A DNA stretch of 64,000 nucleotides from Capsicum annuum (lineage: Eukaryota > Streptophyta > Magnoliopsida > Solanales > Solanaceae): the NCBI RefSeq assembly GCF_002878395.1, contig NC_061118.1, forward strand, positions 127,084,010 to 127,148,009, written 5' to 3'. Every line of letters begins with the position of its first letter. Position 1 is the stretch's first letter. The position numbers were made by a program, and so were the translations under genes. This document shows, piece after piece, positions 3,240-55,650 of this stretch. Under the pieces are notes generated by a model that saw only the letters and a list, made by a program, of their open reading frames with translations, searched no databases and was not told the DNA's origin.

Positions 3240-4000
3240 AGGATAATTTAGCATTATCGATAGATATGGATAAGACTTCAATATATGATTTAAGAGTTCC
3301 AGCACGACATCGGACTAGAGAGTTAAATATGGATATAAAAGATCTTCAGTAGCATCCAAAAAGGTTTAGGCCAACTTATACTCCAGTTGAGCTTGTGACT
3401 ACTTCAGCTTTCGAGGTTCAGCATTGGGAATTTGAGTTATGTTATAGATCCCTCTTATCCATGGATGACATTTGATTCATCGAGCATCCTTCAGAACAGA
3501 GTTGGGTCTATTGGTGTTCATCAGGGTTCTTTACAAATTTTGAGTACGAGATTGTATTTCTTGTATGGTCTAGGCATTTTCCTATGCTACATCCTTCTGA
3601 GTCGAAATTGGTGCATGGATGTGTTAGAGGGTGAGTATTGTCACTCTGTTTAGCATCGAAGCACTGGATAGGAACTGGATTTTCCTTTTTTAGGATGTTA
3701 ATTATGAGAAGACCATAGATAGTACAAGTATTAAGACCTATGGAAATGGCAGCAAGAGGCATGCCATTAGTATAGTGCTACAGGTATTTTATTTGAAAGT
3801 AAGGATTTTTTGGTGGAGTTCAGCTTCAGTTGCAGCCCATTAGCTCTACGCAGATAGTATTCCAAATTATGAGTAGTTTTCAGATTAGTCGTGATGATCA
3901 TAGTAGAAAGAGTCCCCATCAAACTTGCGGAGTGTGGTATGGTTCTTCGGGCCATGGCGACCATTCTGGGTTATGAGGGGGCAGTATCTCAAAGTATTCC
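3240..4000 (+). pseudogene. Decayed gag-like stretch of G1
   Basis: No intact ORF remains. It lies directly downstream of the primer site, where gag is expected. A start ATG is possible near 3266. Around 3927-3990 broken frames give Cys-Gly followed by Gly-His and then a Gly-Gly-rich tail, which could be the relic of a CCHC zinc knuckle of the nucleocapsid. Frame changes and stops (for example TAG at 3348) rule out function. Assignment to gag rests mainly on position and the possible knuckle, so it is tentative. No pol is recognisable after it. Confidence 0.4.
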
Positions 4001-5107
4001 AGGATCTTAGTTTAGTTGTGTCATGATGAGACACTAGTTTAGAGAATGCCTCAGGTATGAGATAGATGATTAAGCTAGAGTTAACATGTATTCCCTACCA
4101 GCCTAGGGTTCCTGAGATAGGTTATGATTATGAAAGTATGGATATAATTGTGGATTTCTCTCAAAATTAGTTGACTAGCAATTTGGCTTCAGTATATGTT
4201 CTCTCTTTATTAATACTTCAGGAGTTGCTATGAATATAGAAAGATCGATAATAGTCTAGAGAGTGTCCATGTTATGAGATTTTGAATCATTCAGCTTATT
4301 CAGATTAGCCTTGTGATGTTGTGGCATATTCAGATTAGCAAGAACCATGGATTCCCTATTTCTCAACAATCTCCCTCAACTAATGACTACCAACTATTTC
4401 ATTATTAGATTCAATTGGTCCTAAAATGATGCATAAGAAATGACCACATCATGTCCTAAGGAAAGCCACATTGGCCATCACTAGCATACACCATATTCCT
4501 CTCTTAATGACATTTCATCAAACACATAGTGGGCATGCCAACCAAGAACTTGGAGAAAGAGAATAAGAGCACTAGAGAGAAAGCTCATCCTACCAAATCA
4601 TCTCCACACATATTCAAGGTGTTCATACTATCGTACTTGAGCCACCCACCCCACAAAATAAGAAAAAAGGTTTTATGGGCATTTTGTCAAACACATCATG
4701 CACTAGATTCATTTATGAGAGTATTATGAGTTAAACTAGTGAAACAAGGCACCAATGACAATCTAATCATTCCAACAAGTATTAATCACCCTAATAAGCT
4801 CACAAAAACCAACTTTACATGACCAACTGTCATGAGGTATCAAGTATTATGTCCATTCCTTAAGAGAGAATTCAAAAGTGAAGTCATGAGAGAGCATACC
4901 TTTATTGATTTAAGAGAGGAGAAAAATTGAAGCACAAGTCCAAAAGAATTCTTTCACTTCTTGCTTAGCAATTGTTCTTCAAGAAAGAGATTATGTTGTG
5001 TTTGGGAGAAAGACACGTTGGAAAAGAGTTGTAATGAGAAAGTTTAAATGTTCACTATTTTTGGCTCATTTTAAGTGTTTTAAAAAGACTTTGGGCTGAC
5101 CGGGTCG
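4001..5107. other. No recognisable gene
   Basis: AT-rich sequence without a supported coding region. ORFs of up to 66 codons match nothing I know. It may hold the remaining G1 internal region on the left and, on the right, the 3' LTR of the minus-strand element A1, but I could find no TG...CA boundary with a duplication. Confidence 0.5.
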
Positions 5108-30012: not shown

Positions 30013-32606
30013 CATAACACCCTGTATTTTTTGGCTAGACATTGAACCATCGTTCCTACATGTGTAAACTCTAAACCCACAATTTTTATTTCAACACATG
30101 TGTCATTATTATTATACTAGTATGAAGAGTGCTTATTAGGTTAAAAATGTTAATAGGAATCACTTAGCACAAAGTTGAGCTAAGAGCCTTTTAATTGGCC
30201 AAATTTTGGTATTTGATTCTCAAGGGTTAAGTTTGAATGCATATAACATTTTATATATGTGTAATTTTGCATATCAACATACACCAAATTATAGATAATT
30301 GAATTAGCTTTCCAATGATATTAATTTTGCCTTAATCTGATATCCGAGCAAAAAGTTATGACTATGCTAAGGCCGTACGTCGCATGGCAATTGTAAATAG
30401 CCATTGGATGAGTTGTGCTATTGATGTGCGCTTCCCAACCTCAGGTGTGCTATTAGAGTACATTGTACAACCTCAGGTGTACTTTTGGCGTGCGCTGCAC
30501 AGCAATAGCAAAGTGCTAAAAGTTGCTTCATTTTTTACTTAAATTAAGGGTGTTGATGTCTTTTCACACCCCTAAACCATCCCTAAGCATTATTAAATGA
30601 ATTAAGGGGTTTTAAAACACATTATTTCCACTCTCTTAACCCCAAAATGCCCAGTATATGACTCAACACCCTTCACCACTTCCCAAGAACCAATGTTAAG
30701 TTTCATCTCTCAAGAACTCAAGGATTCAAGTTCTAATTTCAAATTTTTCTTTAAGAATTCATCTAATTGAGGTATGTGGGGTATTCATCAATGGATTCCT
30801 TTTACCTATTGAGCCAAAAACCTTATTTTTGATTAAAGTATTAATTTTTCTCTAATTATGATCAACTTCCATATAAACTATGAATTTTATCCATGTTTTC
30901 TTGTTACTTTTAAGTTCAAGCCAAGATAATAGTTTTATCCCATATGAATCATTCTCCTACATGTTTAAAGTTTTAAAACCCTAAGTCATGTTCAGTTGGC
31001 ATCACGTCAAATTCTCGAGTTATGATTTAAACTGTATAAACATGATATTTTCCTAAGGTTAACTCATTCCCATGTTTACATTTATGAAATTTATTAGACT
31101 ATTGAAATATCTCATGTTTCAGGTCTTTGAATTATGACATTATGTCATAGTTTTTAAGTATTTCAATTAAATTCTGTAATCATTACACTAGTAGGTTATG
31201 AACACCTGATACCTACTTGGTTACTTACGTTCCAAACTATTTAAGTAATGTTTCACTCAACTCATGATTTTATTATTAAAGTTAGTTTGTTATGATCATT
31301 TTGGGAACTATCAGTTTACATGTTTATAATTATGTCATAATTTGTATGTATTGTTATTTTCAAAAATACCATGACCTGAGCTTACCAGTTATCAATGCAT
31401 GCACCAGTTAGTATTTTAGTATCTTTCAATTGGGAGTAGGATTTAGCAGTGAGTGGTAAGTGTGGGTTTAGCACATCCTACTTCCCTACGTTCCACCATA
31501 GTTTTAGGGGCCTCTCTAGAGAGTGTTTCCCCTTGGCCAATATGGGCTCAGTTTTGTGATCACTCTAGTTTAGGTTCTACTTCAATGTCAAGGATAGAAA
31601 TCCCTCCTCAATGTGGGTTAGACATTGGATTCCATGATAGATCACATGGTTTATGTTGGTTACATGATAGCTCCCATAGTTTCAGTTAGTATTCCATTTA
31701 TCTCAGTTCATGTTTTCTTAACCATGTAATCAGATTTTAGTAATTATACAGTTAGTTTTGCAAATTATTCATGTTATTTAGATCATGTCAGTACACTATA
31801 CTTGGTCTTGCATTCTCAGTTTTACATATTTATGGTTTCATTCTCTGTATTTATACATGATCCTTAGCTTAATTTTATAGCATATTAATCTTTACATGAG
31901 ATTTGTATAAAGTATTCATGTTTCTACTGCTTCCCGGCATATAGAATTATCTTCAGCTCATGATTTATAAATCTCACTATGAATTACAATTTTCATATGC
32001 AACCATGATTTAAATGAATATTTCAGCAAATAACATATGTCCTCAGTCTTAAAGCACGTGTTAAATATTTCCATGATTTAGTACATGTCTCCATATACTA
32101 GTACATTCCAATGTACTTACCATATATATGCATTTGTGACTATATCCTTCGTAATATAGGTGCCAGTTATAGCTCATACACTAGGGTTAGACAGTTCTTA
32201 GCTTTTAGCCAATAAGTGATGAGGTCTCTTATTTTGGGAACTCTAGACAGTTGTAGTTCATATACTGTAGTTCATATACTGTAATGTTATCATTCTTATG
32301 TATTATTTATGGTAGTTGGTGACATGTCCCATTTATTTATAGTCAGTATAGTAGAGGCTTCATAGATAGTTAGTCAGAGTCATGATATGTAATTCAAGTT
32401 TCTTTCTTTAGTTTTATTATGCTGTAAACTATATAAGTATTACATTTATTCAGACATTATCATGATTATGTTTCCACTCAGTAAATTTAGTTTTTATATA
32501 ATTTAAATCTGTTGCTCAAGTATCATTCTGGTACATGGCTTATCTTGGGATCACTTGTGGTTCTAAGCACTGTGTTATGACTAGTGGGTAGCCTTGAGTT
32601 GTGACA
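30013..32606 (+). mobile_element. 5' LTR of R
   Basis: Begins cataacaccctg, aligned to the tgtaacaaccca start of the 3' LTR, and ends gagttgtgaca. Blocks shared with the 3' LTR include the regions around 30340-30520, 31440-31680 and 32100-32330. 2594 bp. An ORF of 78 codons at 31453-31689 is not conserved in the 3' LTR and is not a gene. Confidence 0.85.
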
Positions 32607-32610
32607 AACT

Positions 32611-32622
32611 TGGTATCAAAGC
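32611..32622 (+). other. Primer binding site of R (tRNA-iMet type)
   Basis: tggtatcaaagc matches TGGTATCAGAGC at 11 of 12 positions and starts 5 bases after the LTR end. Confidence 0.9.
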
Positions 32623-33000
32623 AGAAGGTTCAAATGTCTTAGAGTTTCTATAAAGCTGTGACTAGTAGAGTCCTACAAAATGGTACAGAGACATCTGTAC
32701 TTTTCTTTGAGAAGTTATAGGGAATTTAGTAAATATTTCCATTCTTTCATGTCTTAGATCGTGCTGTAGAAATTTTCTCAAATAAACTTATACAGATTCT
32801 CATCATGCTCCATTCATGTCAACTCTGTCTTATTTTTAAGATAAAAAAGAGTAAGACTTAAATTTCTATCGATAGAGTTTTCTCATACAATCTCTATATA
32901 TAACTATAGGATTGCATGTTGGCTCAAAAAGTATCCAATCAGTTCCTCTATTTTCAAAGTATGAAGGATTTCATTCATGATGATACAAAAAAATGTACAT

Positions 33001-33360
33001 CACTACGATAAAAAGGGCTATTAGGGACGAGAAAAATGATCCCTAAAAGTCTATTTCTGGTCCTTAAAAGTCAATAAGGACGGGTAAAATCTGGTCGCCA
33101 CTCGTCCCTAAAGGCTCCATCGCTAAAGATCAATTGCGACGACATTAAATTCTCGATCATTAACGATTATTCGCGACCAGAAAAATTCTGGTCCTTAGAA
33201 TGCTTTTAAGGACCATATTTCTGGTCCCTAAACATAAAAATTGATTGGGGTGTACAATATTCAGGGACAAGATTAACTGGCCCTTAGAGGTCTAATGCGA
33301 CCAAAAATTTAGTCCTTAAAGAAAGAAACAAATTCTGCTCCCTAAAGCTCTGTTTACAAT
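33001..33360. repeat. Left subterminal repeat region of the CACTA element
   Basis: Short words built on gggac(g/c)ag, ctggtcctta and tcgtccctaaa recur in both orientations at intervals of 30-50 bases, as is usual for transposase-binding subterminal regions of CACTA elements. Confidence 0.75.
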
Positions 33361-34650
33361 TTAAGCAAATGTACAGTAGTTTTAAAGAATGTTTTGCTAA
33401 GATATTATACCATTTCAAAGATAGATAATCTCAAATGCACATATAAATAGAGTTATCACTTGTATTGATTATAAAATATGTATTAACATCACAAAGAACC
33501 AATGCTACAAACAAATATTTAAGGAATAGTACTATAACATAGGTCATTTGCCCACAAAGGCTAACATCCTTCGTACATATTCTAATGTTTTGTTCAATAA
33601 TCCTAGAAAAATGACCAATAATTTGTCAACTTGTTTGAAATCATCATAATTCATAGCAATTGAACCTTTAAATCTTGTGTGAAGCTAGTTCAGGCCTTTT
33701 CTCTTGTACCTACAGTAAATGTAAATAGTAGCAATTGAATCATTTCAAGCATAAAAGAAATCACTAGTTTTATCAATATCCAGCTGACACTCGAACACCA
33801 CGAATCAAGATAAATTCTATATATGCAGCAGCTATTCATACACTACAACATAATCTAATCAAACTGGATTTGCTATCTATTACTATATTTCATGACTATC
33901 CATATACAGAGATTAAGGTGAAAGGTAGAGAAAAACTGACATTATCATACTGCAGTTCAGTTCAGTTCAATAGTAAAGAGATTTTTTTTGGTTGAGTATA
34001 CGGCATAAAAGAGATACAATTTATTCTCATTAAAATAGAATAAGCTTTGCAGGTGTTAACAATTAGATTTAAATTGGTGATGGCACTATTCATTAGCTGA
34101 AGGACACAACTTGAGAGATTTTTTTTTTTTGGTTACAGACTGAGCGATATTGATGTGACTCTAGGGCTAAATACAAATATTTGTTAAATGATCTAACAAG
34201 ATACACTATCGTGTGGTATTAAAAGTTTTCAAGTCTTGCAAAGATTGCAGATGAGGGAAAACAAACCTGCATCATTTCCAGTAGCTGAATAATCTAGATC
34301 CTGCCAAGAATACAATAAATGAGGAAAGCACAAATCAGCAGAGCACATAAAATCTCTCATCAAAGTAAAGAAATGTATAAATATTCAAGCCCATTTTAAC
34401 AAAAACAACTAGCAGATAAAGAATCTAGTAGTTTGGAAAACGAAGAAAAATGGGATAGAAGGTAACCTCCAATGTCCATGTTCATCTACATGAAGTCAAG
34501 ATCTACACTCATACGTATTGCTACTTGCTAGAACTTTTTAGATAGAAGTTATTCAATCAGGCATTAATACGTTGAGACCTAACATAAGGCAACAACCTTG
34601 ACAAAACCAAGATAGATATAGATACTCAACTTTGATAAAATAGAGAGGTA
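33361..34650. other. CACTA interior without recognised gene
   Basis: AT-rich sequence. No ORF or splice-bounded exon that I recognise. It could be the 3' untranslated part and introns of the minus-strand chimeric unit. Confidence 0.5.
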
Positions 34651-34654
34651 CTTA

Positions 34655-34784
34655 ATTAATGACAGGTATCGATCTTGAGGCTTGTCATCGGAGAAGTATC
34701 CTATCCACTGTACAACCATCCTTTTATTGTATCGCCTTCATATGTATAACCATCCACTACTATATGTGGATCTTCCATGACATC
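34655..34784 (-). pseudogene. Captured U-box exon (PUB-type E3 ligase)
   Basis: On the minus strand a splice acceptor (ttgaacactttcag) is followed at 34784 by DVMEDPHIVVDGYTYEGD, then TIKGWLYSG, a stop, and DTSPMTSLKI. This is the core of the U-box domain of plant U-box/kinase proteins, in which an intron commonly precedes this very position. The U-box binds E2 enzymes in ubiquitin transfer. The in-frame stop and loss of the sequence after LKI make this a fragment. Not preceded here by the first half of the U-box. Confidence 0.8.
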
Positions 34785-34919
34785 CTGAAAGTGTTCAAGT
34801 CAAAGATAAAAGCATCAATCATATAGGATACACAAAGTACACTAGATACGAAGTATCAGCTACCACAAATTAGCATCTCAAGGTTCTAAGTGATTCACCT
34901 TATTTTGATAATATTAATC

Positions 34920-35169
34920 ACTTAAAGAACCAAAGGCTGGCAACATCTTTATAGCTATTTTTACGTGGTGAATAATCCCCTTGTAAGGAGGATCCAATTA
35001 TTTGACTTTCTAGTACAAGCTTCTTCTCCTTGATCTTTTGAAGTTCTTTTAGGCACAGTTCGTGCTGAATCCTCAATGCTTCTATCTCTTCTTTTTGCTT
35101 TGCAAAAATCTCCTCCTGTTCTTTCCTTTGATCATTCTTTTTCTTGGATAATTTATATGACACTTCAGC
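34920..35169 (-). pseudogene. Captured coiled-coil exon
   Basis: Preceded on the minus strand by an acceptor-like tgtcctag at 35170. The 83-codon stretch is dominated by Lys, Glu and Gln with heptad spacing (KKKNDQRKEQEEIFAKQKEE, then ELCLKELQKIKEKKLVLESQ) and ends at a stop at 34918. The pattern resembles the coil between the N-terminal domain and the kinase in plant U-box kinases of the PUB33 type, which fits the U-box exon just downstream. A transposase tail is an alternative. Confidence 0.6.
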
Positions 35170-35685
35170 CTAGGACAATATAACATCAGTGACAAGAATG
35201 TATTAAAAAAATATGAAATTCTATCATAAAGTATTAGTGGGGAGAAAGGCATATGATCCTAATTAAGGTCATGTCCTCGGTAAGCTGAAACTTACCAAGT
35301 CATTTTATTGTTGAGGCTTCAGTTTCCATTGAAGCAAGAAATAAATGTTAAGAAGGGAGTATAATTAAAGTTAGTATTGAAGAGTTTCCAGAAAAGGAAA
35401 GATTCTTTTTTTAAACACACTAAAAAGGAAAGTAAGATAAGCAAATCAAAAAGAAGGGAGTATAATATAGCTGAAAAGCAGGCTATTGAAATAAGCTTTT
35501 GGTTTGTGAAACCTAACCTTTTCATATTTTTTGAGGATTTTGGAGAATGCAAACAGGTTCATATAGTTGGTATCAGTTCATCCAAGGATTAACAAGCCAA
35601 ATGCAGAGAGCCATTAAAGGAAGAAAATAATTAAATTGAAAGAATTATTTTGGAAGGAAAGTAAGTGAAACTTAAGCTTCACTAC
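35170..35685 (-). other. Probable intron of the captured unit
   Basis: Bounded on the minus strand by a gtagtg donor at 35685 and a cctag acceptor at 35170. Plus-strand ORF 35377-35592 lies within it and is AT-rich, with no family resemblance. Confidence 0.5.
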
Positions 35686-35775
35686 CTGAAGTGTTTTAGA
35701 TGGCTAAGTTTTTGATAAAACTCAATGAAAACAAGCTTCAGCCTATGCTCAACCTGCTTTAGTTCCTCTTTCTTA
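35686..35775 (-). pseudogene. Captured SPX/PHO1-like segment
   Basis: On the minus strand the reading EELKQVEHRLKLVFIEFYQK then LSHLKHF matches the helix of the SPX domain of PHO1-type phosphate exporters (pattern RLK-AFIEFYQKLRLLK). It ends at a good donor (cttcag|gtagtg). It stands in the same exon as, and directly downstream of, the kinase piece, separated from it by about 30 bases and a stop. SPX domains sense inositol pyrophosphates. Short, so identification is moderate. Confidence 0.6.
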
Positions 35776-35945
35776 ATGGAACACTTTGCTGGTTATCGAA
35801 AAAGGATGCCACAACCCAAATCTTCAATATTTAAAATGCCATGATTGTCAATGAGAAGATTAGAACCCTTGATGTCCTGATGCAAAACACCCCGACTATG
35901 GCAATGATCAAGTCCACTTAAAAGCAACCACATGTAACATTTGAC
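35776..35945 (-). pseudogene. Captured CDK-like kinase exon (catalytic loop)
   Basis: Minus strand from acceptor ttcttatag at 35946: QVKCYMWLLLSGLDHCHSRG, then VLHQDIKGSNLLIDNHGIL and NIEDLG. This is the catalytic loop and start of the activation segment of plant CDK-like kinases of the At1g54610/CRK9 type. The HRD motif reads HQD and DFG reads DLG. The similarity ends soon after, at about 35830, followed by a stop. A catalytically dead and truncated kinase piece. Confidence 0.85.
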
Positions 35946-36064
35946 CTATAAGAAACAAAATAAGATTCAAACTTAGTTATTAGACTTAAATTATGCTGTG
36001 CGAAAGAAGAAATTATTATATTAAGAAAAGACTAACGTCCAACAAACAATGCATTGAAAATAAC

Positions 36065-36346
36065 CTGCGGCTCTGTAAATTTAATGCTAGAAAGAGCTGC
36101 TAGATCGGTGAGATCATGTTCCATGTACTCAAATAAGAGGTACAAACTACAAGATGTTCTTGATACAACCAAGCCTTCCAATTTGATGTATTTGGATGAT
36201 CAAGCCTTCTCAGAATAATAATCTCCCTTCCCATAAATTTGATACTTTTAGGATCCATTTTTCGAACCTCACTTTTTTAAGCACAACGAGTTTATCATTA
36301 ACCAGGTCACGAGCTTGTATACACTACTATAAGTCCCTTGGCCAAT
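36065..36346 (-). pseudogene. Captured CDK-like kinase exon (N-lobe)
   Basis: Minus strand between acceptor ttcttccag (36347) and donor ccgcag|gttatt (36064). It encodes the Gly loop IGQGTYSSVYKARDL, then the Lys region LVVLKKVRFEKMDPKS, MGREIIILRRLDHPN, and after a one-base frameshift IKLEGLVVSRTSCSLYL and FEYMEHDLTDLAALSS. Closest in kind to CDK-like kinases with an MGC start. The VAIK-type Lys is present. One frameshift only, so capture or decay is fairly recent. Confidence 0.9.
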
Positions 36347-36798
36347 CTGGAAGAACAATATGCTATTACACAACCAATAAACCATTAATTGACAACACTA
36401 GCGCACGTTGACAAGGAAACTAGATAACAAAGGATAAAATATTAAATGCCACAACCATTGAAATGCAATAGATGGAATAAATGCTGAATCAGCTAAATCA
36501 AATTCTAGTTATGATCGTGGCTGTTCTATAATTTGTTGGATGGTTATCCATCAACTTTCACTATAATTATAGTAATATAAATCTATGAACTACAGAACTA
36601 GTATGTTCCAATCTGCACCTAGCCTTCCTTAGTTAAATCGATAATAGGCACGAGACTATTCTCCCTCAATGGGTGTATAGAACAAAGGGGACAAAAGTAC
36701 AAGGTTCTAATTTAAAAAAAATAGAGAAGCGGAAGAAGGTATCTAGAGTTAATTGTATAGTTAAGTGCATCAGTATGACTATTTGACAATCAGCTTAC

Positions 36799-37021
36799 CG
36801 TTAACTTTCTCATAGTGATCGTCCCCAACCTTTTTAGATCTATTAGGCTTCCTATCAAATGAACCAACTCTTATATCACCATTCTTCAATTTCTCTTTTA
36901 CCCTAAAACTCTTTTCTCTCTTTGAACCCACAACTGATGCCCCTTTATCTAACTCTCTCTTTTTTTAGCCGTCCCACCAATCCTTGACTGATCGAGAAGG
37001 TTTGCCACAAATACAACCCAT
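36799..37021 (-). pseudogene. Captured first exon with MGC start
   Basis: ATG at 37021-37019. Reads MGCICGKPSRSVKDWWDG, a TAA, then KKRELDKGASVVGSKREKSF and a Lys/Arg-rich stretch up to donor aacg|gtaagctg at 36798. An MGC start (N-myristoylation at Gly2, palmitoylation at Cys3) and a basic low-complexity lead are usual for the plant CDK-like kinases whose N-lobe follows at 36346. The in-frame stop breaks it. Confidence 0.8.
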
Positions 37022-37179
37022 TATCAACAAATGATAGCCAATCAAAGACCCTTCTCCGCAGTTGCAAGTTACTGCCTCACAATACCTGCTTAGCAAAAAA
37101 ACCATCTTTCTAAGAATTAATCGAACAATGACAACTTAGAATTCCAATAAAAAGCTCTCGCACATTAGAACTTTAAAAA

Positions 37180-37600
37180 GAACACTATGAAATACCAAGA
37201 ACTCGAATCATATAAAATGCATCGAGAAACAAGATAATAACCCAAAAAATCTCAACTTTTTCACAAAATTTGACTACAAGTGAATACAAATTCCAGAATA
37301 CCTAAAACTAGAATCATATAAACCACATAACGCCACTACCTATAACCCAAAAAAGCAAAACCTTTTCACATAATTCAATTGTAAGTAAAAGATTCCAGAA
37401 TACAGAAACCTAAATCATATAAAATGCATAGAGGGACTAGCTATAACCCCAAAAATGTCAACTTATTCACAATTCAATGGCAAGTGAAAATCAAGATTCC
37501 AGAATACCCAAAACTGAAATCATATAAACTTCATAGAAAAAGAACCTCAAAAAAGCTCAACTTTTTGGCAAAATTGAGTGAAAACGGAGATTAGTGAAAT
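37180..37600. repeat. About 102-bp tandem repeat, roughly 4 copies
   Basis: attccagaatac occurs at about 37290, 37392 and 37496, with the flanking blocks aatcatataaa-n-ca-tag and cccaaaaa-n-ctcaac repeated in the same order; a weaker copy lies just before. It sits upstream of the MGC start, where the promoter or 5' untranslated region of the captured unit would be. Confidence 0.8.
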
Positions 37601-37989
37601 CAAACAAATGAAATTGAGAAGAATTAAAATTAAACAAGCAATAGAAACAAAATCGAAAATAGAAGAAATTGAGAAAGCATAGAGATTATTAGATGAATGA
37701 AAAATAGACGAAAATTGAGAAAGCAATAGAACGAAATTGAAAAGATCAATACGAACAAAGTTTTGCATCCAAACAAACAAAATTTAAGATAAAACTTACC
37801 TGCACAGCTCTTAAAAAACCAAGATTATGCGGCAAAATCCAAAGGGAAAGCACGCAAAGAAGATCGTGTAATAGAGAGAATTTCTTCGATAGTGCAAAAA
37901 TAATAGGGCAAATTGTTGATTGAATAAGAACACGTTTAAGCTATTGGTATATTTTCAAGAGAATTAATTGTAATTAGATTTTTGAAAAG

Positions 37990-38213
37990 GCAAAAAAATT
38001 GGCATTTTTGCGCCTATGTATTATTTTCCCGCTGAAGGATCTATTACCAATAGGGATGAGTTAAAAAAAATTAGGACCATATTTTATGCTTTTGCAAAAA
38101 AATACATAATTAAGGACCAAAATATAATCTCATCGCAATTGATATACTTTTAGAGACCAAATTATTAACTCATCCCTAAATGTTGGTCTTAAATAAACCT
38201 TTTTATTGTAGTG
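37990..38213. repeat. Right subterminal region of the CACTA element
   Basis: Words such as gggatgag, ttaggacca, aaggacca and agagaccaaatt recur, in complement to those at the left end. Confidence 0.7.
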
Positions 38214-38216
38214 CAT

Positions 38217-41200
38217 TGAGCCCAAGTCATATGTGCCCTCAGATCCCTTCTCATAATTCTATGACAACATATGATCTAGAGTTAAAAGCATGAACCTAAT
38301 AGTTTAACAGTAGTAAAGTGGGGATATTGTTTATTTGGATTTAGTAAATTATGTATCCATGGGGCTAGTTGTATGAAAGGTGAATCAGTAGGCTTGAAAT
38401 AGTGTATGTAATAATTTAAGTCTATTGATGCAAAGTTAAGTATGGTGGTATGGTTATGATCTAGAGGTGTACCCATGGTGATATGGGATTGTATTATTTC
38501 TAAGTTTTTAATGTGTGTGCTTAGATATTAACCTTGAGTTGCTGGTGCGTATGAGGCCAGTAATGTAGTATATGATGTTCTTACCTTCTAACTTATGGGT
38601 TATAAGTTGTTGATGTTGGGTATGTCGGTGTAATGATAATTCTTATAGTTTATGAAAAAATATGAGTTTAGAGATGTGGTATTAGTAGGCTGTAAAGGGA
38701 AAAATGCAGATTATGTGTTTAGTAAGGTAAGTATGTTGTCAAGAAGGGTGTAAGTATGTGATGACTGCTAAAGCTAAGGAAAGTTAAGGATGGTATAGAT
38801 TAAAGGAGTGTTCAAGAATAAAGTTAGTATGTTTATTAAAAAGTTTGGGAATATACATGTTAAGTGTTAGAATTTAAGTCTAAATCTTGGTTGATTGAGC
38901 TAATAAAAGGAAGAGTTGAAAATCTAGATGGTGTTAACTCAGGGTATGGTGATACTCAAGAAGATTCTAAGTTAGTAAGTATTCAAGTTCTTATATGATA
39001 ACTAGTGGTGCTATAAAAAGTTAAGAATTATATCTCAGAAGTAAGTACTAGCAGTGGGTTTTACACTTTTAGGTGTAGTCTTTCAAGGTGATTATCTATA
39101 TGTATTATTATATATCAAACTCTAGAGTAAAATGGCTACAGTTTAGTTTAGAGTCTATTAAAGGGGTCCATAGACTTAGAATGATGGCTTAAACCTAAGG
39201 GTGAGGCGATAGAACAAAGAACGAAGTCAGGCTCTTAGAATCTAGTAGTGATGCCAAGGTACTTTAGAACATTAGTAAGGGAGGAAAATGCCTGACTCAT
39301 TCTTATCTTAGTGCAAATTTTTGTACTTCAGTCATCATGAAATCTACTCAAGCCTCACAAGTTATCTCCATGATCATAGCTCATATTTATACATTTTTCA
39401 TAGAATCATATATGCTTCAAGTTCCGAGTATAAGGATTTCTAGTTCACTTAGCAGTACGAATCTTATTCTATGAACTCATGAACTTCAAACTCATGACTC
39501 ATGTATTCATGCTTTGCAGTCTGTGCAGTTCTAGGAGCTCGTGATACACTCTTAATGATTAGCAAAATTAGATTATGTCATTTAGGTCCTTAGGTTAGAT
39601 CTCTTTAATGAATTTATTATATTGATATTGTATTCCTCAGGCCTCAATTAAGGTTCCAAGTTATGCATAGTATCCTTCCATGATTCAAGATCGCGTGTTC
39701 TAACCTTTCAGTGACCTCTCCTTATGAAATAATAGTGGTGATGTGAAATTGCTTAGATAGGAGAGAGCAAACGTTTCATGTTAAGGAAAGATTGTTGTAT
39801 GCTTGATTTATCTAAGGCTATAAGTATGAAGAAAGAATGAGGCAAAACTTTTTAGTATATGTCATGGTTAGTTGAAATTTCGTGTGTGATTTCTTGGGAA
39901 TATTACATGAATGTTGTTATTGATAGAGGTATTAGAGAATATAGGAAATATGCTTTGGTGGATTTTTTTGCCTAGAAGTTTATATGTGGTTATAACGATA
40001 GGCTTGAATGTTATGTTGGTGTATAATTGGATGGATGCATTATGACCTAGTGAATTCCTAGTAAGAGGTTGAATTAGTTATTGAAATGGTAAGAAGAATT
40101 ATTCTTGAGATGGGAGCTGCGAAACATGCATGAGGTATTAAATTCATGGCTTAGACTGGTAGTACGGTGTTGTGTATGACACCGTACTTAAACATGGTAG
40201 GAGTATGTAGTTTAACTTAGACTTGGGCTAAAGTAGTTATCAATACCCATATAAAAATTATAAATTGAATCAAATAACCATGGTATTTAAGGGGACAAGT
40301 ATGATTGAGAAAAGATTTAAGAAGTATGGCTAAGTTTGAAAGTTAGAAGTTGCCTTACCTAAGGCATTGTAATTCTATTCTAGCTTATGTTTCATAGGCC
40401 TATATTACATGCTATCGAGTTGTAGTTATGTTGCGATTCCTTATTCAGATAACTTACTTAGATCATGCCTAAATATTGTTTTGCTCCCAAATTTTGATAG
40501 AACTTTTTCGAAAGTGTATTAAAGGTAATACTCCAGTTGAGTATAAACTTTTAGTATGATTTAGTCTGTATAGACCACAATTCATTCTAGCAGTCAAACA
40601 GATAAGCTCCTATAGTTATCCAACTTTCCATCGTGTCTTACTATCTGAAGTTTCATGAGTATGACTATTCTATGAGGTAAAATATTTGCATCCATGCAAA
40701 TTGTGTATTCAGTTCAGTCCATGCAGCATGTCTATCATCTAGATACTTAGTCATGATTCAGTTCATAAGTGCTCAGTTAATGATCTCATTGCATTCCATC
40801 TCAAACATGGTAATACCTATTATACGACCTTGGTCCGTTATCTCAGGATTTGTGCCTACATAATGTACTTGGCGATGCCATGAAGCCCTTGCTTCATTGA
40901 TTCCTATATGTGTATTGTTGAGGGATAATTCCTAATGAGAAGTTACATAATTTATTCCATCCTCAGTAACTCTTGGGATTTTGTTACATCAGTTATCACT
41001 TTGCAGTTCTATATGTATGATCATATCATGAACATTTCAAGTGAGTTCTAAACTATCAGCATGAATCAGCTCCTTATAGTTAATAAAGTCAAATTAGCTC
41101 AAAAATCAGTTTCATGATGAAACTTATAATGTTCCAGCTAAGATACATCCTTTATTATGTCTATATTATTCCACACTTCTAAGTCTTCAACAAGTTTCTA

Positions 41201-41223
41201 TCCATCATTCAAAGATGAATGAT
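38217..41223 (+). other. R internal region, right part: no recognisable gene
   Basis: No ORF above about 64 codons and no gag, protease, RT, RNase H or integrase motif in any frame that I can recognise. A short hairpin (gtacggtgt ... acaccgtac) lies at about 40153-40178. The purine tract ccctggggagata at 41224-41237 directly precedes the 3' LTR. Confidence 0.6.
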
Positions 41224-41238
41224 TCCCTGGGGAGATAA

Positions 41239-44200
41239 TGTAACAACCCACATTTTTAGGCTAGATATTGAACCCTCATTCCTATATGTGTAAACTTGAA
41301 TCCCATGATTCTTATTTTCATACATGTGTCATGATCATTATCCTAGGGTGAAGAGTTCTTATTAGGTGAAAAATGTTCATAGGAATTACTTAGAGCAAAG
41401 TTGAGCTAAGAGCCTTTGATTCAGTCAAATTTTGTTATTTGATTCTACAATAGTAAACTATGAACGTGTATAACATTTTTCAAATGTGGAATTTTGTATC
41501 TTATTACCTACTAAATTATAGATAATTGAATTAGCTTTCCAATAATACCAATTTCGCCTTAATCCGATATCCGAGCGAAAAGTTATGACCATGCTAAGGT
41601 CGTGTATCGCATGGCAATCACAAATAGCCACTGAATGAGGTGTAATATTGGTGTGTGCCGCACAACCTTAGGTTTTCTATTGGCGGTCACCTTACAACCT
41701 CAGGTGTACTTTTGGCATGTGCCGTATAGCAATAGCAAAGTGCCAAAGTTGCTTCATTTTGACTTAAATAAGGGCATTGCAATCTTGTCACACTCCTAAA
41801 CCATTCCTAAGCATTATTAAACAAATTAAGGGGTTTGAAAATATATTGTTTACACTCTCTTAACCCCCAAAATGTCCAGTATATGACTCAAAACCCTTCC
41901 CCTCTTCCCAAACCAAATTCAAGTTTCATCTTTCAAGAACTCAAGGCTTCAAGTTCCAATTTAAAATTTTCCTTCAAGAATTCATCCAATTGAGGTATGT
42001 GGGGTATTCATTAATTGATTCATTTCACCCATTGAGCCCAAAAACCCTCTTTTTAATTTAAGTATGAATTTGCTCTAATTATGATCAACTTCCATGTAAA
42101 CTATGAATTATTTCCATGTTTTCTCATTAATTTTATGTTTAAGTCAAGCTAATAGTTTTATTCCATGTGAATCATTCCCCTACATGTTTAAATTTTCAAA
42201 ACCCTAAGTCATGTTCTGTTGGCATCATGTCAAATTCTTGAGTTATGATTTAAACTATATAAACATGATATTTTCCCAAGGTTAACTCATTCCCATGTTT
42301 ACATTCATGAAATTTATCAGACTATTGAAATATATCATGCTTTGGGTCTTTGAATTATGACATAATGTCACTATTTTTAGGTATTTCTATCAAATTTTGT
42401 AATCATTCAGTGCTGGCAGGTTATGAACACCCGATACCTACAAGTTTACTTATGTTTCAGACTTTTTACGTAATGAGTCAGTCAACTCATAATTTATTTA
42501 TTAAACTCGGATTGTTATGATTATGTTGGGCACTATCAATTTACATGTTTATGATTAATTCAGAATCTGTATGCACTATTATTTTCAAAAATACCATGAC
42601 CTGAGCTTACCAGTTAGCAGTGCATGCACCAATTATTATTTCAGCGTCTTTTAGTTGGGAGTAGGATTTAGCACCGAGTGGGAAGTGTGGGTTTAGTATA
42701 TCCTACTTCCCCAAAAACTTTGTGCCACCGTAGGTTTAGGGTCCTCGCCAGAGAGTGTTTCTCATTGGCCAATATGGGCTCATTTTTATGACCACTCCAA
42801 TTTAGGTTCTTCTCCAATTGCAAGGATAGAACAACCCTTCTCAAGGTGGGTTAGACCTTGGACTCCATGATAGCTCACATGACTTATGTCGGTTACATGA
42901 TTGCTCTCATAGTTTCAGTCAGTATTCAGTTTATCTCAATTCTGGTTTTCTTGACCAAGTAATCAAATTTCAGTAATTATACAGTTGGTTTTACAATTTA
43001 TTTATGTTATTCAGATCATGTCAGTACACAATACTTGGTCTTGCATTCTCAATTTTATATGTTCATGGTTTCATTCTCAGTATCCATACATGATCCTCAC
43101 TTCAGTTTTACAGCATGTTAAGCTTTAAAAAGCTTTGTATGCATTGTTAATGTTTCTAATGCTTCCCACCTTATAGAATTGTGTTGACCTCATGATTTAT
43201 AAATCTCACTTTGACATATATTAATCACTTACAACCATGTTTTAAATGCATGTTTGAGCAAATAACGTATGTCCTCAGTTTTAAAGCATGTTTTAAATAT
43301 TTCTATGATTTAGTGCATGTCTCCATATACTCAGTACATTCCAATGTACTGCCCACATATATGCGTTTGTGTCTATATAATTCATAAAATAGGTGCCAGA
43401 TGTAGCTCATACACCAAGGTCATACAGTTCTCAACTTTCAGCCAACAAAGTTCTCCTATTTTATGAACTCCAGACAATTGTAGTTCATGTATTGTAATGT
43501 TATCATTCTTATGTATTTATTTGTGGTAGTTGGTGGCATGTCCCAGCTATCTATAGTCAGTATAGTAAAGGTGACAGCACCCAAGCACACACACAAGTGT
43601 ACGTGGTCTTATCAAGTAGTAAAGTGGCTTCAAGAAAGCCCAAGTATCGATCTCACAGGGACTTGCGTTCGCTGCCTATCCAATTCTAGTTAAATAATTG
43701 AGAAAAAGTAAATAAAGAGGTTTAAGAATTGTAAACTAAAAAGAAACTAAACTAATGAAGAAAAGTAAATGACTTAGGACAATCAATGGATAGAAGCCCA
43801 GGGTTAAGGCTTACGACCAATCATACTACGTTGTTGAACTTTATTCGTTAAATTTCTTATCGTGGTTGTTGATACATAGGGTCAGTTGCATAATTATGGT
43901 TTCCCAACCTCTAATACTTTACCTCAGTTGAACCTTACAACTACATCATTGAGAGAGGATGTAATGATCCAATTAGGTTATTTAAGCTATCTTCCTACGT
44001 GTGAATCAAGTAAGGCATCTAAGTACACCCTGTCCTAGATGCTAATTCAACTCACTTATTTTATAAAGAAACAAGAACCCTACTTTGCTTATTCCATTAT
44101 TTTATCTCCCTATTCCCTCTCCTGAGATGACAAGGTAGCTAATCCATAAAATAGTTAAAACAAAAATAAACAAGCAACCAATAATGATAAGCAAATCAAC

Positions 44201-45521
44201 TAACTTAATTCAAAAAGACATAATCATGATCTTGGCCTTAACCCTGAAAAGGTAGTTTTAGCCTTTAATGGAAATATTCATCATCCAATCCCTTGGATAG
44301 ATTATACAAACCATAAAGAAACTAAATTAAAGAATGATAAAACCTTAAAGGAAGTTGTGGTAGCCTCCAATGCTCCAAGATGTCCAGAAGTATGTAAAAA
44401 ATGCGATATAACATGTATTTATAGTATAGAGAAAGCCCAATCCATGTTGGAGTTGAAAACCTTCAGTTATTGAGCCCAGGAGTGGGTAGGGTTGTGCCTC
44501 TATATCGCCCTACCTCTCTGGATTCTCAGAAATTTTTCTAAGGCAAAGGGGGTACAGAAATGAGTCCGCATCGTGGACTATTCGCCTTTAGGACCACCAC
44601 ACACCATGTGGTTGTAATTTTGGGCATATTATGAATCCATTTATGTTTTTCAAAATTCCATTCGGCACTTCTACAAGCAACATGTGCCTTAGAAATTCAA
44701 GGGGTTCAAAAGTGCATCAATCTGCATATTGTGCCTTTATTGAGCGATTTTGAGCCTTTTTGAGTTGTTTCCACTTGATTTGTAGCCTTTATATACTTCA
44801 TATAACATCATAATCCATATACAAATCATCATATATCATTAAACACAAAAATTTAAAGCTTAAAACAACACAACATCCAATACGATGAACTAGAAATATG
44901 ATCTAAGCCTAGGCTAATTTCACTTTGATCCTTAACTCATTGTTTTGATCCTTGTGCATTATAAACAAGTTTTTTCACATATAAATACATAATAAAAACA
45001 TTAGGAACTCATTAAACACATTATAACCCAACATGACTAGACAAACACCTAGCTCAAGCTAGTAACGCTAGTTTTTCGGGTTGAACTCTAAATGAATCTT
45101 TAAAGCACAAACTTGTTTGGAACTCACTCATAAAATCATAAACACATGCTTTAACATTTTGATACATATTTATATCATTATCAATTCATATATAACATGA
45201 ATAATCCTCAAAACAAGGCTAAAAAGGCTAGAATAGTGACACTAGAATGCATAAATACACCCAACATCAAAAGGCTTCATAGATAGTTGTTAGACTCATG
45301 ATATGTAATTCAAGTTTCTTTATTTAGTTTTATCGTATTGTAAACTTTATAAGTATTACATTTATTCAGATATTCTCATGATAATTTTTCCATTCAGTAA
45401 ATTTACTTTTTATACAACTTAAATCTGATGCTCAAGTATCATGCCAGTACATAGGTTAGCTTGGGATCACTTGTGGTTCTAAGCATCATATTACGACTAG
45501 GGGTTGCCTCAAGTTGTAAAA
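41239..45521 (+). mobile_element. 3' LTR of R, interrupted by solo LTR S1
   Basis: Begins tgtaacaaccca right after a purine tract and ends gagttgt-type sequence (agttgtaaaa, with the CA end lost). Its two parts, 41239-43571 and 45270-45521, match the 5' LTR in order. Confidence 0.85.
43572..45269 (-). mobile_element. Solo LTR S1 in the R 3' LTR
   Basis: TGACAGCACCC at the left, ...CCAACATCA at the right, with 5-bp duplications AAAGG at 43567-43571 and 45270-45274. The uninterrupted R 5' LTR reads straight across this site. 1698 bp, no coding region and no second LTR. The minus-strand end (gggatcgata-like sequence before cttgggtgctgtca) resembles the ends of Athila-type LTRs such as 57338-58870, so I read it on the minus strand. 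Confidence 0.85.
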
Positions 45522-45776: not shown

Positions 45777-48200
45777 TGTAATACCTCGTATATTCATAAG
45801 CTAGAAAATAAACCATTGTTCCAACGTGTAAAACCTCTAATCTTGTAATTTATATTTTAGTACATGACTTACAATGATTATCCTAGTGAGAAGAGAGCTT
45901 ATGATATGTTAAACGTGTTCATAAAAGTCACTTAAAGTAATGGAAGATAAGAGCTTTTGAATCCATCAAGTTTTAGTGTTTCATTTCACAAGGGTCATCT
46001 TTGAATGAGAATAACTTAATTTATATGTGGTATTTTCATATATTTAGACCAACCAAACTGTAGAGAATCGAATTAACTTTCGAAAGATACCAATTTTGCC
46101 AAAATCTGGCAACCGAGAAAAAATTTATGGCTTTGCAAAGTGGAGTACGTCGCCTAACAAATCACCTAAGGCTACTGAAATGGTTATGCCATAAGTGCCT
46201 CATAACATAGCTTATGCGATAAGTTGAGTGTTGCCTAGCCTAACTTAGGCGATGGGCAATGCGCCGCCTAACCTAGCTTAGGCAATAGGCAATGTGGCAC
46301 ATACCTTATGGCCTAAGTGACGTAAACACTCAATTTTTGAGTTATTTTGAGGGAAACTAAGTCTTTTGACACTCCTTAAATGTCCCTAAACTTAACCTAC
46401 CAAAATTAATAGCTCCTAATCATATTATAACCCTATTAACATCCTAAGTTCATCATCTAAAAGCACTATAGGAGAAAAATAACTAGGGTTGTACAATCAA
46501 GCTTGAAGGTCCAATATTTCAACGATTTCGTCACAATAAAGGTATGTGGAGTTTGAACAAGAGCAATTCTTTTGCTCTTGTACCCAAAAATTAAGTTTCT
46601 AATGGATTTCTTATGATTTTGAATATAAGGTTTACACCCAAAGTATCTTGTTGATGAATTTTAAGCATGATGTGATTGATTTATGAAATTTTATGGTTTC
46701 CTTGAGTTAAAGAAGGCTCTTTTGTGACTTTGAATACCATGAGCATGATTGGAGACATTGTTTATAGTTTTTTTCATTGAATTGAACATGATATTGTGAT
46801 TTGAAGCTATTACTTTTATATTATTAAACTATTTTAAGAAAAGTTTTTGAAGCATAATGATTTATCATGCATTTACATGAGTTGGATATATTGATACTCA
46901 ATTATATAAGCAGTATATGATCTTTGATCCTCATATGAGTTTTGATATCCACTTCACAGAGTTATTCATATAATGATTGACTGCATAACTGGTTTTCCAA
47001 TAAACCCTTATATGAGTTTTAATATAGATTTCTATGAGAGGAGCATAGCTAATAAAAGGGAGTAGTATTTAGCACCGATTTGGGTAAGTTACTACGGTTT
47101 CATACCCCAGAACTACGTGCCGCCATAGGATTGAGACTTTTGGGCCTAAGGTCGAGATAGTGATCACTAAGTTGAGGTTATACTCTCTGGAAAAAGTATG
47201 ACACCTTCCCAGCATAAAGTTTCTTCCTTATGAGGACAAAAATATTGGACTTCATGTAGATCACATGATTTATGTCAGTTAAGAGAACCTCCCTAATAGT
47301 AATATTTTCAGATTAGTTTGTTAAAGTATTTTTCCCTCAAAGAAAGTATTTTTCCCTGCTAGTAAAATTAAATGAACAGCTTTTGAGTATTTTTCTCCAA
47401 AGATTTTGGGAGCTAAGTGCAAAGGGTCACAACTTAATCAAATATTACTTTACTTAAAATTTCATTTTCAAAGCTACAAGTCTTAGCTTTCAAATGTAGA
47501 GTTGAGCTCTTTCTCGCTTATTCTATATGTTTTGAGAAGGTAATAAAACTACAGATTTTTGAACTAAGTATAATGACTCGCAAGATTTATGTTACAAGTT
47601 TTACTATTCATGACTTATCAAATTTATTCAAGCTATGTGAGTCATTTATATTTCACATGCATTTGTTTTATAAAATAATGATGTTGTTTATGCATACACC
47701 CCCATATAAACAGTATATCCTTAAAGTACTGATTCACATATACGTCTGTGTGCTATATTGTCTTATAAAGTAGGTTCAAGTGCTCAGTCTCAGCAGCGAT
47801 AGTTATCTCCGAGTACCTTGATCCACTCTTCCACAGTTGGTTAATCCTCATGGTCTGAGGACCTATTTTCCCTGATTTCAATCGTCATAGTAGTTGGTTT
47901 AATTCTTTTCAGTTGAGTATGAGTAAATTGGGGATCTTTCCTAATGGATCTCTAGTTCTTTAGTAGTAGAGGCTTTGTTAGACTAGACTATTAGTTGTGT
48001 TTAGACTTTTTGGTATTTTGCATTTGAAAACAATATTTATTCATATTTTTGTATGGACATGATATGACAGTACCATTGCTTTGCCCTATTTGTCTTAAAG
48101 TAAGATCTAGATTCAGTAATAAGCTCAAAGGGTTAGCTTGGGGATACTTGTAGCCTTGAGCACCGTGTGTTGCTTCGAGATAAGATTTTGGGGCATTACA
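45777..48200 (+). mobile_element. 5' LTR of C
   Basis: Starts TGTAATACCTCGTATATTC, ends GGGGCATTACA. Contains ORF 47573-47773, which is not conserved as an ORF in the 3' LTR. Confidence 0.95.
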
Positions 48201-53218: not shown

Positions 53219-55650
53219 TGAATACCCCATATATTCCTAAGCTACAAAACAAACCATTGTTCCTACGTGTGAAACCTTTAATCTTGTAATTTATATTTGA
53301 GTACATGACTTACAACGAGTATCTTAGAGAGAAGAGAGCTTATAATGTGTTAAACGTGTTCATAAGAGTCACTTAAGTAATGCAAGCTAAGAGCTTTTGA
53401 ATACATTAAGTTTTAGTGTTTGATTTCACAAAGGTCATCTTTAAATGAGCATAACTTGATGTATATATGATATTTTGGTAGATTTAGACCCACCAAATTT
53501 TAGAAAATTGAATTATCTTTCAAACGATACCAATTTTGCCAAAATTCGGCAACCGAGCAAAAAGTTATGGCTTTGCAAAATGGAGTGCATCGCTTAACAA
53601 ATCACCTAAGGTTACTGGAATGGTTATGCCATAAGTTAAGCTCCTCCCAACTAAGCTTAGGCTATAAGTTGAGCACTTCTTATCCTAACTTAGGCGATGG
53701 TCAATATGCCGCCTAACCTAACTTAGGTGATGGGCAATGCGGCATATACCTTATGGACCAAGTGACGTAAACACTCTGTTTTTGAGTTATTTTGAGGGAA
53801 ACTAAGTCTTTTGACACTCCTTAAACGTCCATAAACTTAGCCTTATGAAATTAATAGCCCCTAATAACATTATAACCCTATTAATATCCTAAGTTAATTA
53901 TCTAAGACCACTATAGGAGAAAAATAACTAGGGTTGCACAATCAAGCTTGAAGGTCCAATATTTCAACGATTTCGTCACAATAAAGGTATGTGGAGTTTG
54001 AACAAGAGCAATTCTTTTGCTCTTGTGCCCAAAAATTATATTTCTAATGGATTTCTTATGATTTTGAATATAAGGTTTACACCCAAAGTATCTTGTGATG
54101 AATTTTAAGCATGATGTGATTGAATTAAGAAATTTTATGGTTTCCTTGAGTTAAATAAGGCTTTTTTGTGACTTTGAATACCATGAGCATGATTTTGAGA
54201 CATTGTTTATAGGTTTTTTCATTGAATTGAATATGAGATTGTGATTAGAAGCTATTACTTTTACATTATTGAAGGATTTTGAGAAAATCTTGCGAAGCAT
54301 GATGATTTGCTATGCATTTACATGAGTTTGATTTATTGATACTCAATTATATAAGCAGTATATGATCTTTGATCCTCGTATGAGTTTTGAAATCCACTTC
54401 ACAGAGTTATTCATATATTCATTGAGTGCATAACTGGTTTCCTAATAAACCCTTAAGCGAGTTTTAAAGTAGATTTTCATGAGATGAGCATAGCTAATAA
54501 AAGGTAGTAGTATTTAGAACCAAGTTGGGTAAGTTACTATGGTTTCATACCCCAAAACTATGTGCCACCATAGGATTGAGAATTTTGGGCCTAAGGCTGA
54601 GATAGTAATCACTAAGTTGAGGTTATACTCTCTGGAAAGATTATGACACCTTCCCCAGCATGAGGTTTCTTCCTTTGAAGGACAAAAACATTGAAATCTA
54701 TGTAGCTCGCAGGGTTTAGGTCGGTTAAGAGAACCTCCTTAATAGTAATATTTTTAGAGTAGTTTCTTAAAGTATTTTTCCCTTAAAAAATGTATTTTCC
54801 CTGCTTGTAAAAGTAAATGAACAACTTTTAAGTAATTTTCTCCAAAGATTTTGGGAGCTAAGGGTAAAGGCTCACAACTTAACCAGATATTACTTTACTT
54901 GAAATTTCAATTTCAAAGCTACAAGTCTTATCTTTCAAATGCAGAGTTGAGCTCTTTATCACTTATTCTATATGTTTTGAGAAGGGAATAGAACTACAGA
55001 TTTTTGAACTAAGTATAATGACTCGCGAGATTCATGTTACAAGTTTCACTATTCATGACTTATCAAATTTATTCAAGCTATGTGAGTCATTTATATTTAG
55101 CATGCATTTGTTTTATAAAGTAATGATGTTGTTTACTATATTCATACACCCCCATATACTCAGTACATAGTCAAAGTACTGATTCACATATACATCTGTG
55201 TGCTATATTTTGTTATAATGTAGGTTTAGGTGCTCAGTCTCAGCAGCGACAGTGATCTCTGAGTACCTTGGTCTACTCTTCCACCATTGGTGAGTCCTCA
55301 TGGTTTGAGGACCTATTTTCCCTAATTTCAGTCGTCATAGTAGTTAGTTTAATTCTTTTTAGTTGAGTATGAGCCAGTTGGGGATCTGTCCTAACGACTC
55401 TCTAGTTCTTGAGTAGTATAGGATTTGTCAGACTAGACTATCAGTTGTGTTAAGACTTTTTAGTATTTTGCATATGAAAACATTATTTCTTCATATTTTA
55501 TTATGGACATGATATGACAATACCATTGTTTTTCCCTATTTGTCTTAAAGTAAGCTCTAGATTTAGTAATAGGCTCAAAGGGTTAGCTTGGGGATACTCA
55601 TAGCCTTGAGCACCATGTGATGCTTCCAGATGAGATTTCGTGGCGTTACA
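53219..55650 (+). mobile_element. 3' LTR of C
   Basis: Starts TGAATACCCCATATATTC, ends TGGCGTTACA, directly before the target duplication CTTGA. Confidence 0.95.

What the first reader, a model, noticed from the sequence alone, without database searches (positions are those of the whole stretch)
33001..38213. CACTA transposon carrying pieces of several host genes as one chimeric unit
Terminal repeats, the 3-bp duplication CAT and subterminal repeats define the element exactly. Inside, on one strand and with donor/acceptor sites, lie an MGC first exon, CDK-like kinase exons, an SPX/PHO1-like segment, a coiled-coil exon and a U-box exon. These come from at least two, probably three, different gene families. 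Such transduplication is known for CACTA and Pack-MULE elements, but this combination is not one I know. A transcript could join kinase N-lobe, SPX and U-box parts.
Basis: partly seen in the sequence, partly recalled or inferred. Interest (0 to 1): 0.85.

Follow-up and report, generated by a model that had tools for sequence, protein, structure and literature searches.

The report
Jumping gene carrying host gene pieces
This is a non-autonomous plant DNA transposon, almost certainly from pepper, that picked up pieces of three host genes and then spread as one unit; such elements are known in other plants, and the carried pieces look like decaying passengers rather than a working new gene.

Summary
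Confirmed and resolved. 33001-38213 is a CACTA transposon (TIRs agree at 19 of 22 places, CAT/CAT duplication, subterminal repeats), inserted in an LTR retroelement; 39 other copies of that retroelement lack it. It carries pieces of three genes whose likely donors lie elsewhere in the same genome: a CDK-like kinase (C10:8.66 Mb), a PHO1-like SPX gene (C11:17.62 Mb), and a U-box receptor-like kinase gene (C3:214.40 Mb or a paralogue) that supplied both coiled coil and U-box. Six distinct full-length insertions share the donor breakpoints, so the chimera formed once and multiplied. Relatives share an arm but have other middles; one carries a KH-domain piece.

Function is unlikely: all six copies have stops or frameshifts, carried coding pieces vary as much as non-coding parts, and kinase and SPX join out of frame. 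RNA could not be tested. One copy was annotated as a pepper protein (P0001), joining kinase exon 1 to the U-box across a later insertion.

Verdict: a Pack-CACTA, new member of a known kind; soybean Tgm-Express1, with five gene fragments including a CDC2, is a close precedent. Its value is that one genome holds donors, empty sites, daughter copies and relatives with other cargo.

The parts
32998..33000 (.). left copy of 3-bp target duplication CAT
33001..33022 (+). left terminal inverted repeat
33001..33350 (.). left subterminal repeat region (GGTCC/GGGAC motifs)
33001..34663 (.). left arm, shared with other-cargo relatives L012, L013, L014, L021, L022 (88.6-93.9% by piece; they have about 110 extra bases near 34584)
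34658..34865 (-). U-box exon piece (exon 34659-34784) plus upstream intron of a U-box receptor-like kinase gene
34863..34986 (-). piece of the same gene: start of its kinase domain
34986..35262 (-). coiled-coil exon (to 35169) plus upstream intron of the same gene
35263..35365 (.). 103 bases not assigned to a donor
   Evidence: no match in the donor stretches examined
35366..35775 (-). SPX piece of a PHO1-like gene with its intron (exon parts about 35686-35773 and 35517-35565; acceptor AG reads AA in this copy)
35770..36739 (-). CDK-like kinase piece: catalytic-loop exon (to 35945) and N-lobe exon (36065-36347) with introns
36740..36791 (.). scar where about 1.2 kb of the donor kinase gene is missing; 36761-36790 is a 30-base donor remnant
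36792..37566 (-). CDK-like kinase first coding exon (MGC..., 36801-37021) and 5' region of the donor gene, with the 105-bp tandem array
37567..38213 (.). right arm (left limit approximate); 37600-38213 also occurs whole, at 77-81%, in six relatives without a listed matching left end
38192..38213 (-). right terminal inverted repeat
38214..38216 (.). right copy of target duplication CAT
30015..45517 (.). host LTR retroelement that the transposon entered (LTRs 30015-32602 and 41241-43571 + 45272-45517)

Best explanation
The element is a non-autonomous CACTA transposon of the Pack-CACTA type. An ancestor of the present copies took up genomic pieces, introns included, of three host genes, and the resulting unit has since been moved as a whole by a CACTA transposase supplied from elsewhere in the genome. 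Shown: ends, duplication, target sites without the element, donor genes or close paralogues, common breakpoints, six separate insertions, other-cargo relatives, decay of the frames. Inferred: movement in trans by a TNP2-type transposase; capture by error-prone joining, probably when neighbouring CACTA copies were mobilised or repaired together; the cargo is carried passively and has no protein function.
For: TIR, duplication and subterminal repeats. Target without element: all 39 matches other than the window's own run across the joined flanks (40 of 2905 candidates were scored; these are other copies of the retroelement, not the same locus in another plant). Chimeric copies at 8 places = 6 distinct insertions, since L009, L019 and L020 have the same flanks; pairwise identity 91.5-94.4%. 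Of the 6, 4 have a perfect 3-bp duplication (window CAT, L009 TAG, L010 TAT, L017 ATT), L018 has one mismatch, L011 has a damaged right end. Likely donors for the window copy: CDK-like C10 (91.1, 92.1 and, over the tandem-array part, 84.5%), PHO1-like C11 (91.5%), U-box RLCK C3 (88.0, 93.5, 89.9%); families by Pfam. Donor breakpoints agree in 6 of 6 copies to within 13 bases, except the left edge of the kinase deletion, which varies by 30 bases. Left-arm tree of 13 sequences puts the 6 chimeric copies on one side of a split with support 0.981. No transposase family in 20 stretches of the element (not every frame was scanned), while Transposase_21 is abundant in the genome (150 matches scored of 3748 candidates). 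No overall constraint: variable columns 116 of 620 in four carried coding pieces, 410 of 2403 in non-coding parts.
Against: Codon position 2 varies less (27 of 207) than positions 1 and 3 (46 of 208, 43 of 205), which could be read as weak constraint. The N-lobe, catalytic-loop and second SPX pieces were not in that count. The first SPX part is the least divergent (0.034, only 88 bases). One copy was annotated as a gene (P0001). Junction overlaps of 1-3 bases, read by eye, are no more than chance allows, so the joining mechanism is not shown. 103 bases (35263-35365) have no assigned donor, and which paralogue gave the U-box gene piece is open.
Confidence: 0.95

Rival explanations
1. The chimera is a new working gene, spliced from kinase, SPX and U-box exons and carried by the transposon.
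For: All pieces lie on one strand; acceptors of the catalytic-loop, coil and U-box exons are kept in 6 of 6 copies, N-lobe acceptor and donor in 5 of 6 each; all six copies have a GGTAAGC donor after the MGC exon that the C10 gene lacks; annotation pipelines predicted proteins like this cargo (P0001-P0004).
Against: 6 of 6 copies have stops or frameshifts in the kinase pieces; carried coding pieces vary as much as non-coding parts; the kinase frame meets a stop after four codons beyond the joint with SPX; P0001 needs 12 residues from a 3.4-kb later insertion.
Confidence: 0.03
2. The cargo acts through RNA: transcripts or small RNAs from the host pieces tune the three donor gene families in trans.
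For: Cargo is about 84-94% identical to living donors over 124 to 970 bases each, long enough for small RNAs to match in places.
Against: No RNA or small-RNA data were available; perfect 21-24-nt matches to donors were not counted.
Confidence: 0.08
3. The pieces are remnants of a degraded local gene or of successive unrelated insertions, and the CACTA ends merely bracket them.
For: The region is repeat-rich and nested in an LTR retroelement.
Against: The same 5.2-kb order with the same donor breakpoints occurs at six sites with different flanks, and other copies of the target lack it.
Confidence: 0.01

Closest known systems
Tgm-Express1 of soybean (Zabala and Vodkin 2007; PMC1947982, abstract and passages seen)
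   Same: 5.7-kb CACTA element carrying exon and intron pieces of five unrelated genes, one of them a CDC2 kinase with its introns; pieces spliced into chimeric transcripts
   Different: Sits in a flower-colour gene and was shown by cDNA; the other donors differ (UP, FPK, malate dehydrogenase, cysteine synthase); the passages I saw give no set of daughter copies
Pack-TYPE / Pack-CACTA elements (Gisby and Catoni 2022, PMC8903248, abstract and sections 9-10 read; Catoni 2019 known only through these and through passages of PMC13317346)
   Same: Non-autonomous, TIR-bounded, host coding pieces from several loci inside, multiplied as families, terminal parts shared and interiors different
   Different: Described there in rice, maize and Arabidopsis; here almost certainly pepper, with PHO1-like, CDK-like and U-box RLCK donors
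CACTA elements with captured fragments in Chenopodium (PMC8978399, passages seen)
   Same: CACTA elements with host gene fragments, and tandem repeats inside some elements
   Different: Those in the passages seen have transposase domains; none was found in this one

Membership tests
CACTA (En/Spm) superfamily | TIRs beginning CACTA | tested here: met
   19 of 22 matches, CACTAC at both ends
CACTA (En/Spm) superfamily | 3-bp target duplication | tested here: met
   CAT/CAT; perfect in 4 of 6 chimeric insertions
CACTA (En/Spm) superfamily | repeated subterminal motifs | tested here: met
   clear at the left end (8 motifs in 350 bases), weak at the right (2 in 184 bases)
CACTA (En/Spm) superfamily | mobilised by a TNP2-type transposase | tested here: inconclusive
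   None found inside; PF02992 abundant in the genome; one listed match, C3:27768682-27769284, lies 4.2 kb from a right-arm match at C3:27773516 (71%), noticed by eye. Movement itself not testable
Pack-CACTA (Pack-TYPE) | no transposase of its own | tested here: met
   0 of 20 stretches of the element hit a transposase family; not every frame was scanned
Pack-CACTA (Pack-TYPE) | contains host gene pieces whose donors lie elsewhere | tested here: met
   donors or close paralogues on C10, C11, C3
Pack-CACTA (Pack-TYPE) | several copies with the same cargo | tested here: met
   8 places, 6 distinct insertions
Pack-CACTA (Pack-TYPE) | capture by mobilisation of neighbouring insertions | tested here: inconclusive
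   left and right arms have different nearest relatives, but lists were capped, right-arm relatives are only 77-81% alike, and 4 other places have both ends listed
functional chimeric gene | open frame kept by selection | tested here: not met
functional chimeric gene | spliced transcript | not testable with these tools
   no RNA data

The most novel reading that the evidence does not exclude
The element is a mosaic of two CACTA subfamilies (left arm of the L012/L014 type, right arm of the C7:136.77 Mb type) fused around cargo taken from three genes in several joining events, and the genome still holds relatives of both arms. Pepper would then hold, in one assembly, most stages of how a Pack-CACTA grows, so that the neighbour-fusion model could be tested base by base.
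Probability: 0.35. Interest if true: 0.5.

Novelty: new member of a known kind. Interest (0 to 1): 0.36.

Why it matters
It gives a well resolved case of gene capture in a 3.2-Gb plant genome: donors, target sites without the element, six daughter insertions and relatives with other cargo. It also shows how such cargo enters public databases as proteins: FXO38_16413 (P0001) is a gene model over one of these copies, and P0002-P0004 look like the same kind; counts of U-box and kinase genes in pepper should be cleaned of them.

Tried and rejected
Single-gene origin was rejected: the donors are on three contigs. A working gene was rejected on frames and divergence. C10:8.665 Mb was at first taken for a further copy with an insertion; its exons examined are open and include the part missing from the element, so it is the donor. 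C7:206.036 Mb (L054, 79-82%) was rejected as donor in favour of C10. The kinase-SPX search (P0006 region 1-87) gave 94 proteins of 97 candidates, all listed with kinase domains and none with SPX, so it shows no annotated kinase-SPX fusion in the length range searched; 7 of the 94 were read. The 36-aa SPX piece alone found nothing in the PDB; the two parts together matched SLC53A1/XPR1 (best E 0.00056) and PHO1 homolog 1 (0.0018), among 29 matches at a limit of 10. The coil alone matched only MAD1 (8.5e-04) and polybromo-1 (0.42) in the PDB and Pfam MAD below its cut-off, so it was not recognised until the donor gene was seen. NCBIfam gave generic bacterial kinases for P0006 and P0002 and nothing for P0001 and the coil. 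Rfam at gathering scores and the tRNA search found nothing in the window. Seven paper searches (capped listings read, apart from the papers named) showed no report of this element in pepper; subscription journals are mostly not held. Passages of PMC4938662 were seen and not used.
Full report
What was checked. The window lies in a 3.21-Gb assembly (G000:C8:127084010-127148009). The four named proteins nearest to the cargo are from Capsicum annuum or C. baccatum, and P0001 (C. annuum FXO38_16413) is encoded letter for letter, in three pieces, by another copy in the same assembly. I therefore infer that the window is from pepper, probably C. annuum; no call names the assembly.

Ends. TIRs 33001-33022 and 38192-38213 agree at 19 of 22 places and are flanked by CAT. 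Among 32 CACTA...TAGTG pairs with equal 3-bp flanks in the window the next best has 13 of 22, and the best in 100 first-order Markov windows was 16. Subterminal motifs are concentrated at the left end (8 in 350 bases) and less so at the right (2 in 184 bases). Joining the flanks and searching the genome gave 40 matches, one being the window's own left flank; the 39 others all run through the joint, at 80-84% identity (40 of 2905 candidates scored). They are other copies of the target, not the same locus in another plant. The target is the internal region of an LTR retroelement whose LTRs (30015-32602; 41241-43571 plus 45272-45517) are 85% identical, K2P 0.170. The transposon entered after that element; with recalled substitution rates of 0.7 to 1.3 x 10^-8 per site and year the LTR pair dates to very roughly 6-12 million years.

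Cargo and donors. With element position n = window position minus 33000: 1658-1865, 1863-1986 and 1986-2262 match, in this order, one gene at C3:214400700-214403500 (L056) at 88.0, 93.5 and 89.9%, with 1773 and 256 bases of the gene missing between them. That gene codes for a coiled-coil stretch that runs into a receptor-like kinase domain (PF07714 1.4e-28) and a U-box (PF04564 4e-13). Matches of similar quality lie at C75578 and C6, so which paralogue gave the piece is not settled. That this is the PUB32/33/50 type is my recollection. Element 2366-2775 matches L053 (C11) at 91.5%: two SPX exon parts (PF03105; the first above, the second below Pfam's cut-off) and the intron between them; the intron's AG acceptor is kept in 4 of 6 copies and reads AA in the window copy and L017. 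Element 2770-3739 and 3792-4045 match L041 (C10) at 91.1 and 92.1%, and 3792-4566, with the tandem array, matches L042 at 84.5%: a CDK-like kinase whose exons examined are open. Sources name similar proteins At1g54610-like (P0031, P0098). About 1.2 kb of that gene, 1,159 bases of it in one block and including the stretch WPSSLAAVAGEAINGW, is missing in the element. Junction overlaps are 1-3 bases, read by eye, too short to prove a joining mechanism. All pieces lie on the minus strand.

Copies. The left kilobase gave 41 matches from 40 scored of 139 candidates. I fetched stretches for 19 of the 40 matches other than the window, and 5 extensions. Full chimeric copies: window, L009, L010, L011, L017, L018, L019, L020; L009, L019 and L020 share flanks and count as one, leaving 6 insertions. 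The kinase query found the same 8 places plus two rows of the C10 donor and 12 weaker rows (22 rows); the SPX query the same 8 plus C11, C10 and 7 kinase-like rows (17 rows); the coil/U-box query the same 8 in 9 rows plus 26 rows elsewhere (35 rows). Breakpoints against the donors agree in 6 of 6 copies to within 13 bases, except the left edge of the kinase deletion, which varies by 30 bases. L012, L013, L014, L021 and L022 share the left arm to about element 1653-1663, with about 110 extra bases near 1584, and the last 140 or so bases, with other middles; L013 and L022 are alike (88%) over 6.4 kb, and L022 has a KH-domain stretch (PF00013 5.7e-10). L015 and L016 share 2-1220 and L023-L027 shorter left stretches. 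In a left-arm tree of 13 sequences the split between the 6 chimeric copies and 7 relatives has support 0.981. The right arm has 6 further full-length relatives at 77-81% (49 rows, 40 of 417 candidates scored). Comparing 40 of the 41 left rows with 40 of the 49 right rows, none of these 6 has a listed left end within 20 kb, whereas the 8 chimeric places and 4 others (C8:68.00, C3:215.25, C3:134.51, C4:19.96 Mb; left ends 71-75% alike) have both ends listed. The caps on both lists, and those 4 places, leave the two-subfamily mosaic a lead.

Does it do anything? In 6 of 6 copies the kinase pieces contain stops or frameshifts. Mean pairwise difference is 0.034-0.090 in carried exon pieces, 0.061-0.080 in the stretches between them, 0.064 in the left arm. 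Variable columns are 116 of 620 in four coding pieces (MGC, coil, U-box, first SPX part; the N-lobe, catalytic-loop and second SPX pieces were left out) and 410 of 2403 in non-coding stretches; by codon position 46 of 208, 27 of 207 and 43 of 205. The low value at position 2 is a result that leans the other way. At the kinase-SPX joint the kinase frame runs four codons on and stops, and SPX lies in another frame; three copies (L009, L011, L018) keep the donor's length of 171 bases for the kinase piece up to this joint, two of them with stops inside it. All six copies have a GGTAAGC donor after the MGC exon where the C10 gene reads on, so splicing of this exon to later pieces is possible. P0001 joins that exon to the U-box through 12 residues coded inside a 3.4-kb insertion in copy L010; it is a gene model, not evidence of a protein. 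P0002-P0004 (C. annuum, C. baccatum, C. annuum) also lack the WPSS stretch, which suggests that they too come from copies of the cargo and that the kinase capture is older than the split of these species; this rests on gene models that hold the kinase part only.

Against what is known. Pack-CACTA elements with pieces of several loci are described (PMC8903248, abstract and sections 9-10; review PMC13317346, passages). Tgm-Express1 (PMC1947982, abstract and passages) is a 5.7-kb CACTA with five gene pieces, introns included, one of them a CDC2, and its pieces are spliced into chimeric mRNAs. The present element meets the anatomical features of that kind that I tested; movement and mode of capture stay untested or inconclusive. 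Its combination of donors was not seen in the capped listings of seven paper searches. I rate it a new member of a known kind.

Noticed in passing
window 30015-32602, 41241-43571, 45272-45517: Old LTR retroelement (LTRs 85% identical) that the transposon entered; its right LTR is split by 1.7 kb at 43572-45271. The empty-site query had 2905 candidate places, so the family is probably very large.
   Followed up: partly
window 45780-48200 and 53221-55650: Second long direct repeat pair, 88.9% over 2.4 kb, probably LTRs of another element.
   Followed up: no
window 37191-37541: 105-bp tandem array, 3.4 copies, inside the element; the donor kinase gene has matching repeats upstream of its MGC exon, so it was probably captured with it.
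   Followed up: partly
L022:4427-4672: Relative with the same left arm carries a KH-domain piece: a different captured host gene; L013 has the same overall structure.
   Followed up: partly
G000:C3:27768682-27769284 and 27773516-27773969: A Transposase_21 match 4.2 kb from a right-arm match: candidate autonomous relative.
   Followed up: no
window 34658-34865: The U-box piece alone has many further matches (83-93%) in the genome, so this gene piece is itself widely dispersed.
   Followed up: no
L027:3904-6442: Caulimovirid-like frames beside a short left-end relative; described only.
   Followed up: no
L010/L028: Chimeric copy with a 3404-bp later insertion; pepper gene model FXO38_16413 (P0001) runs across it.
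   Followed up: yes
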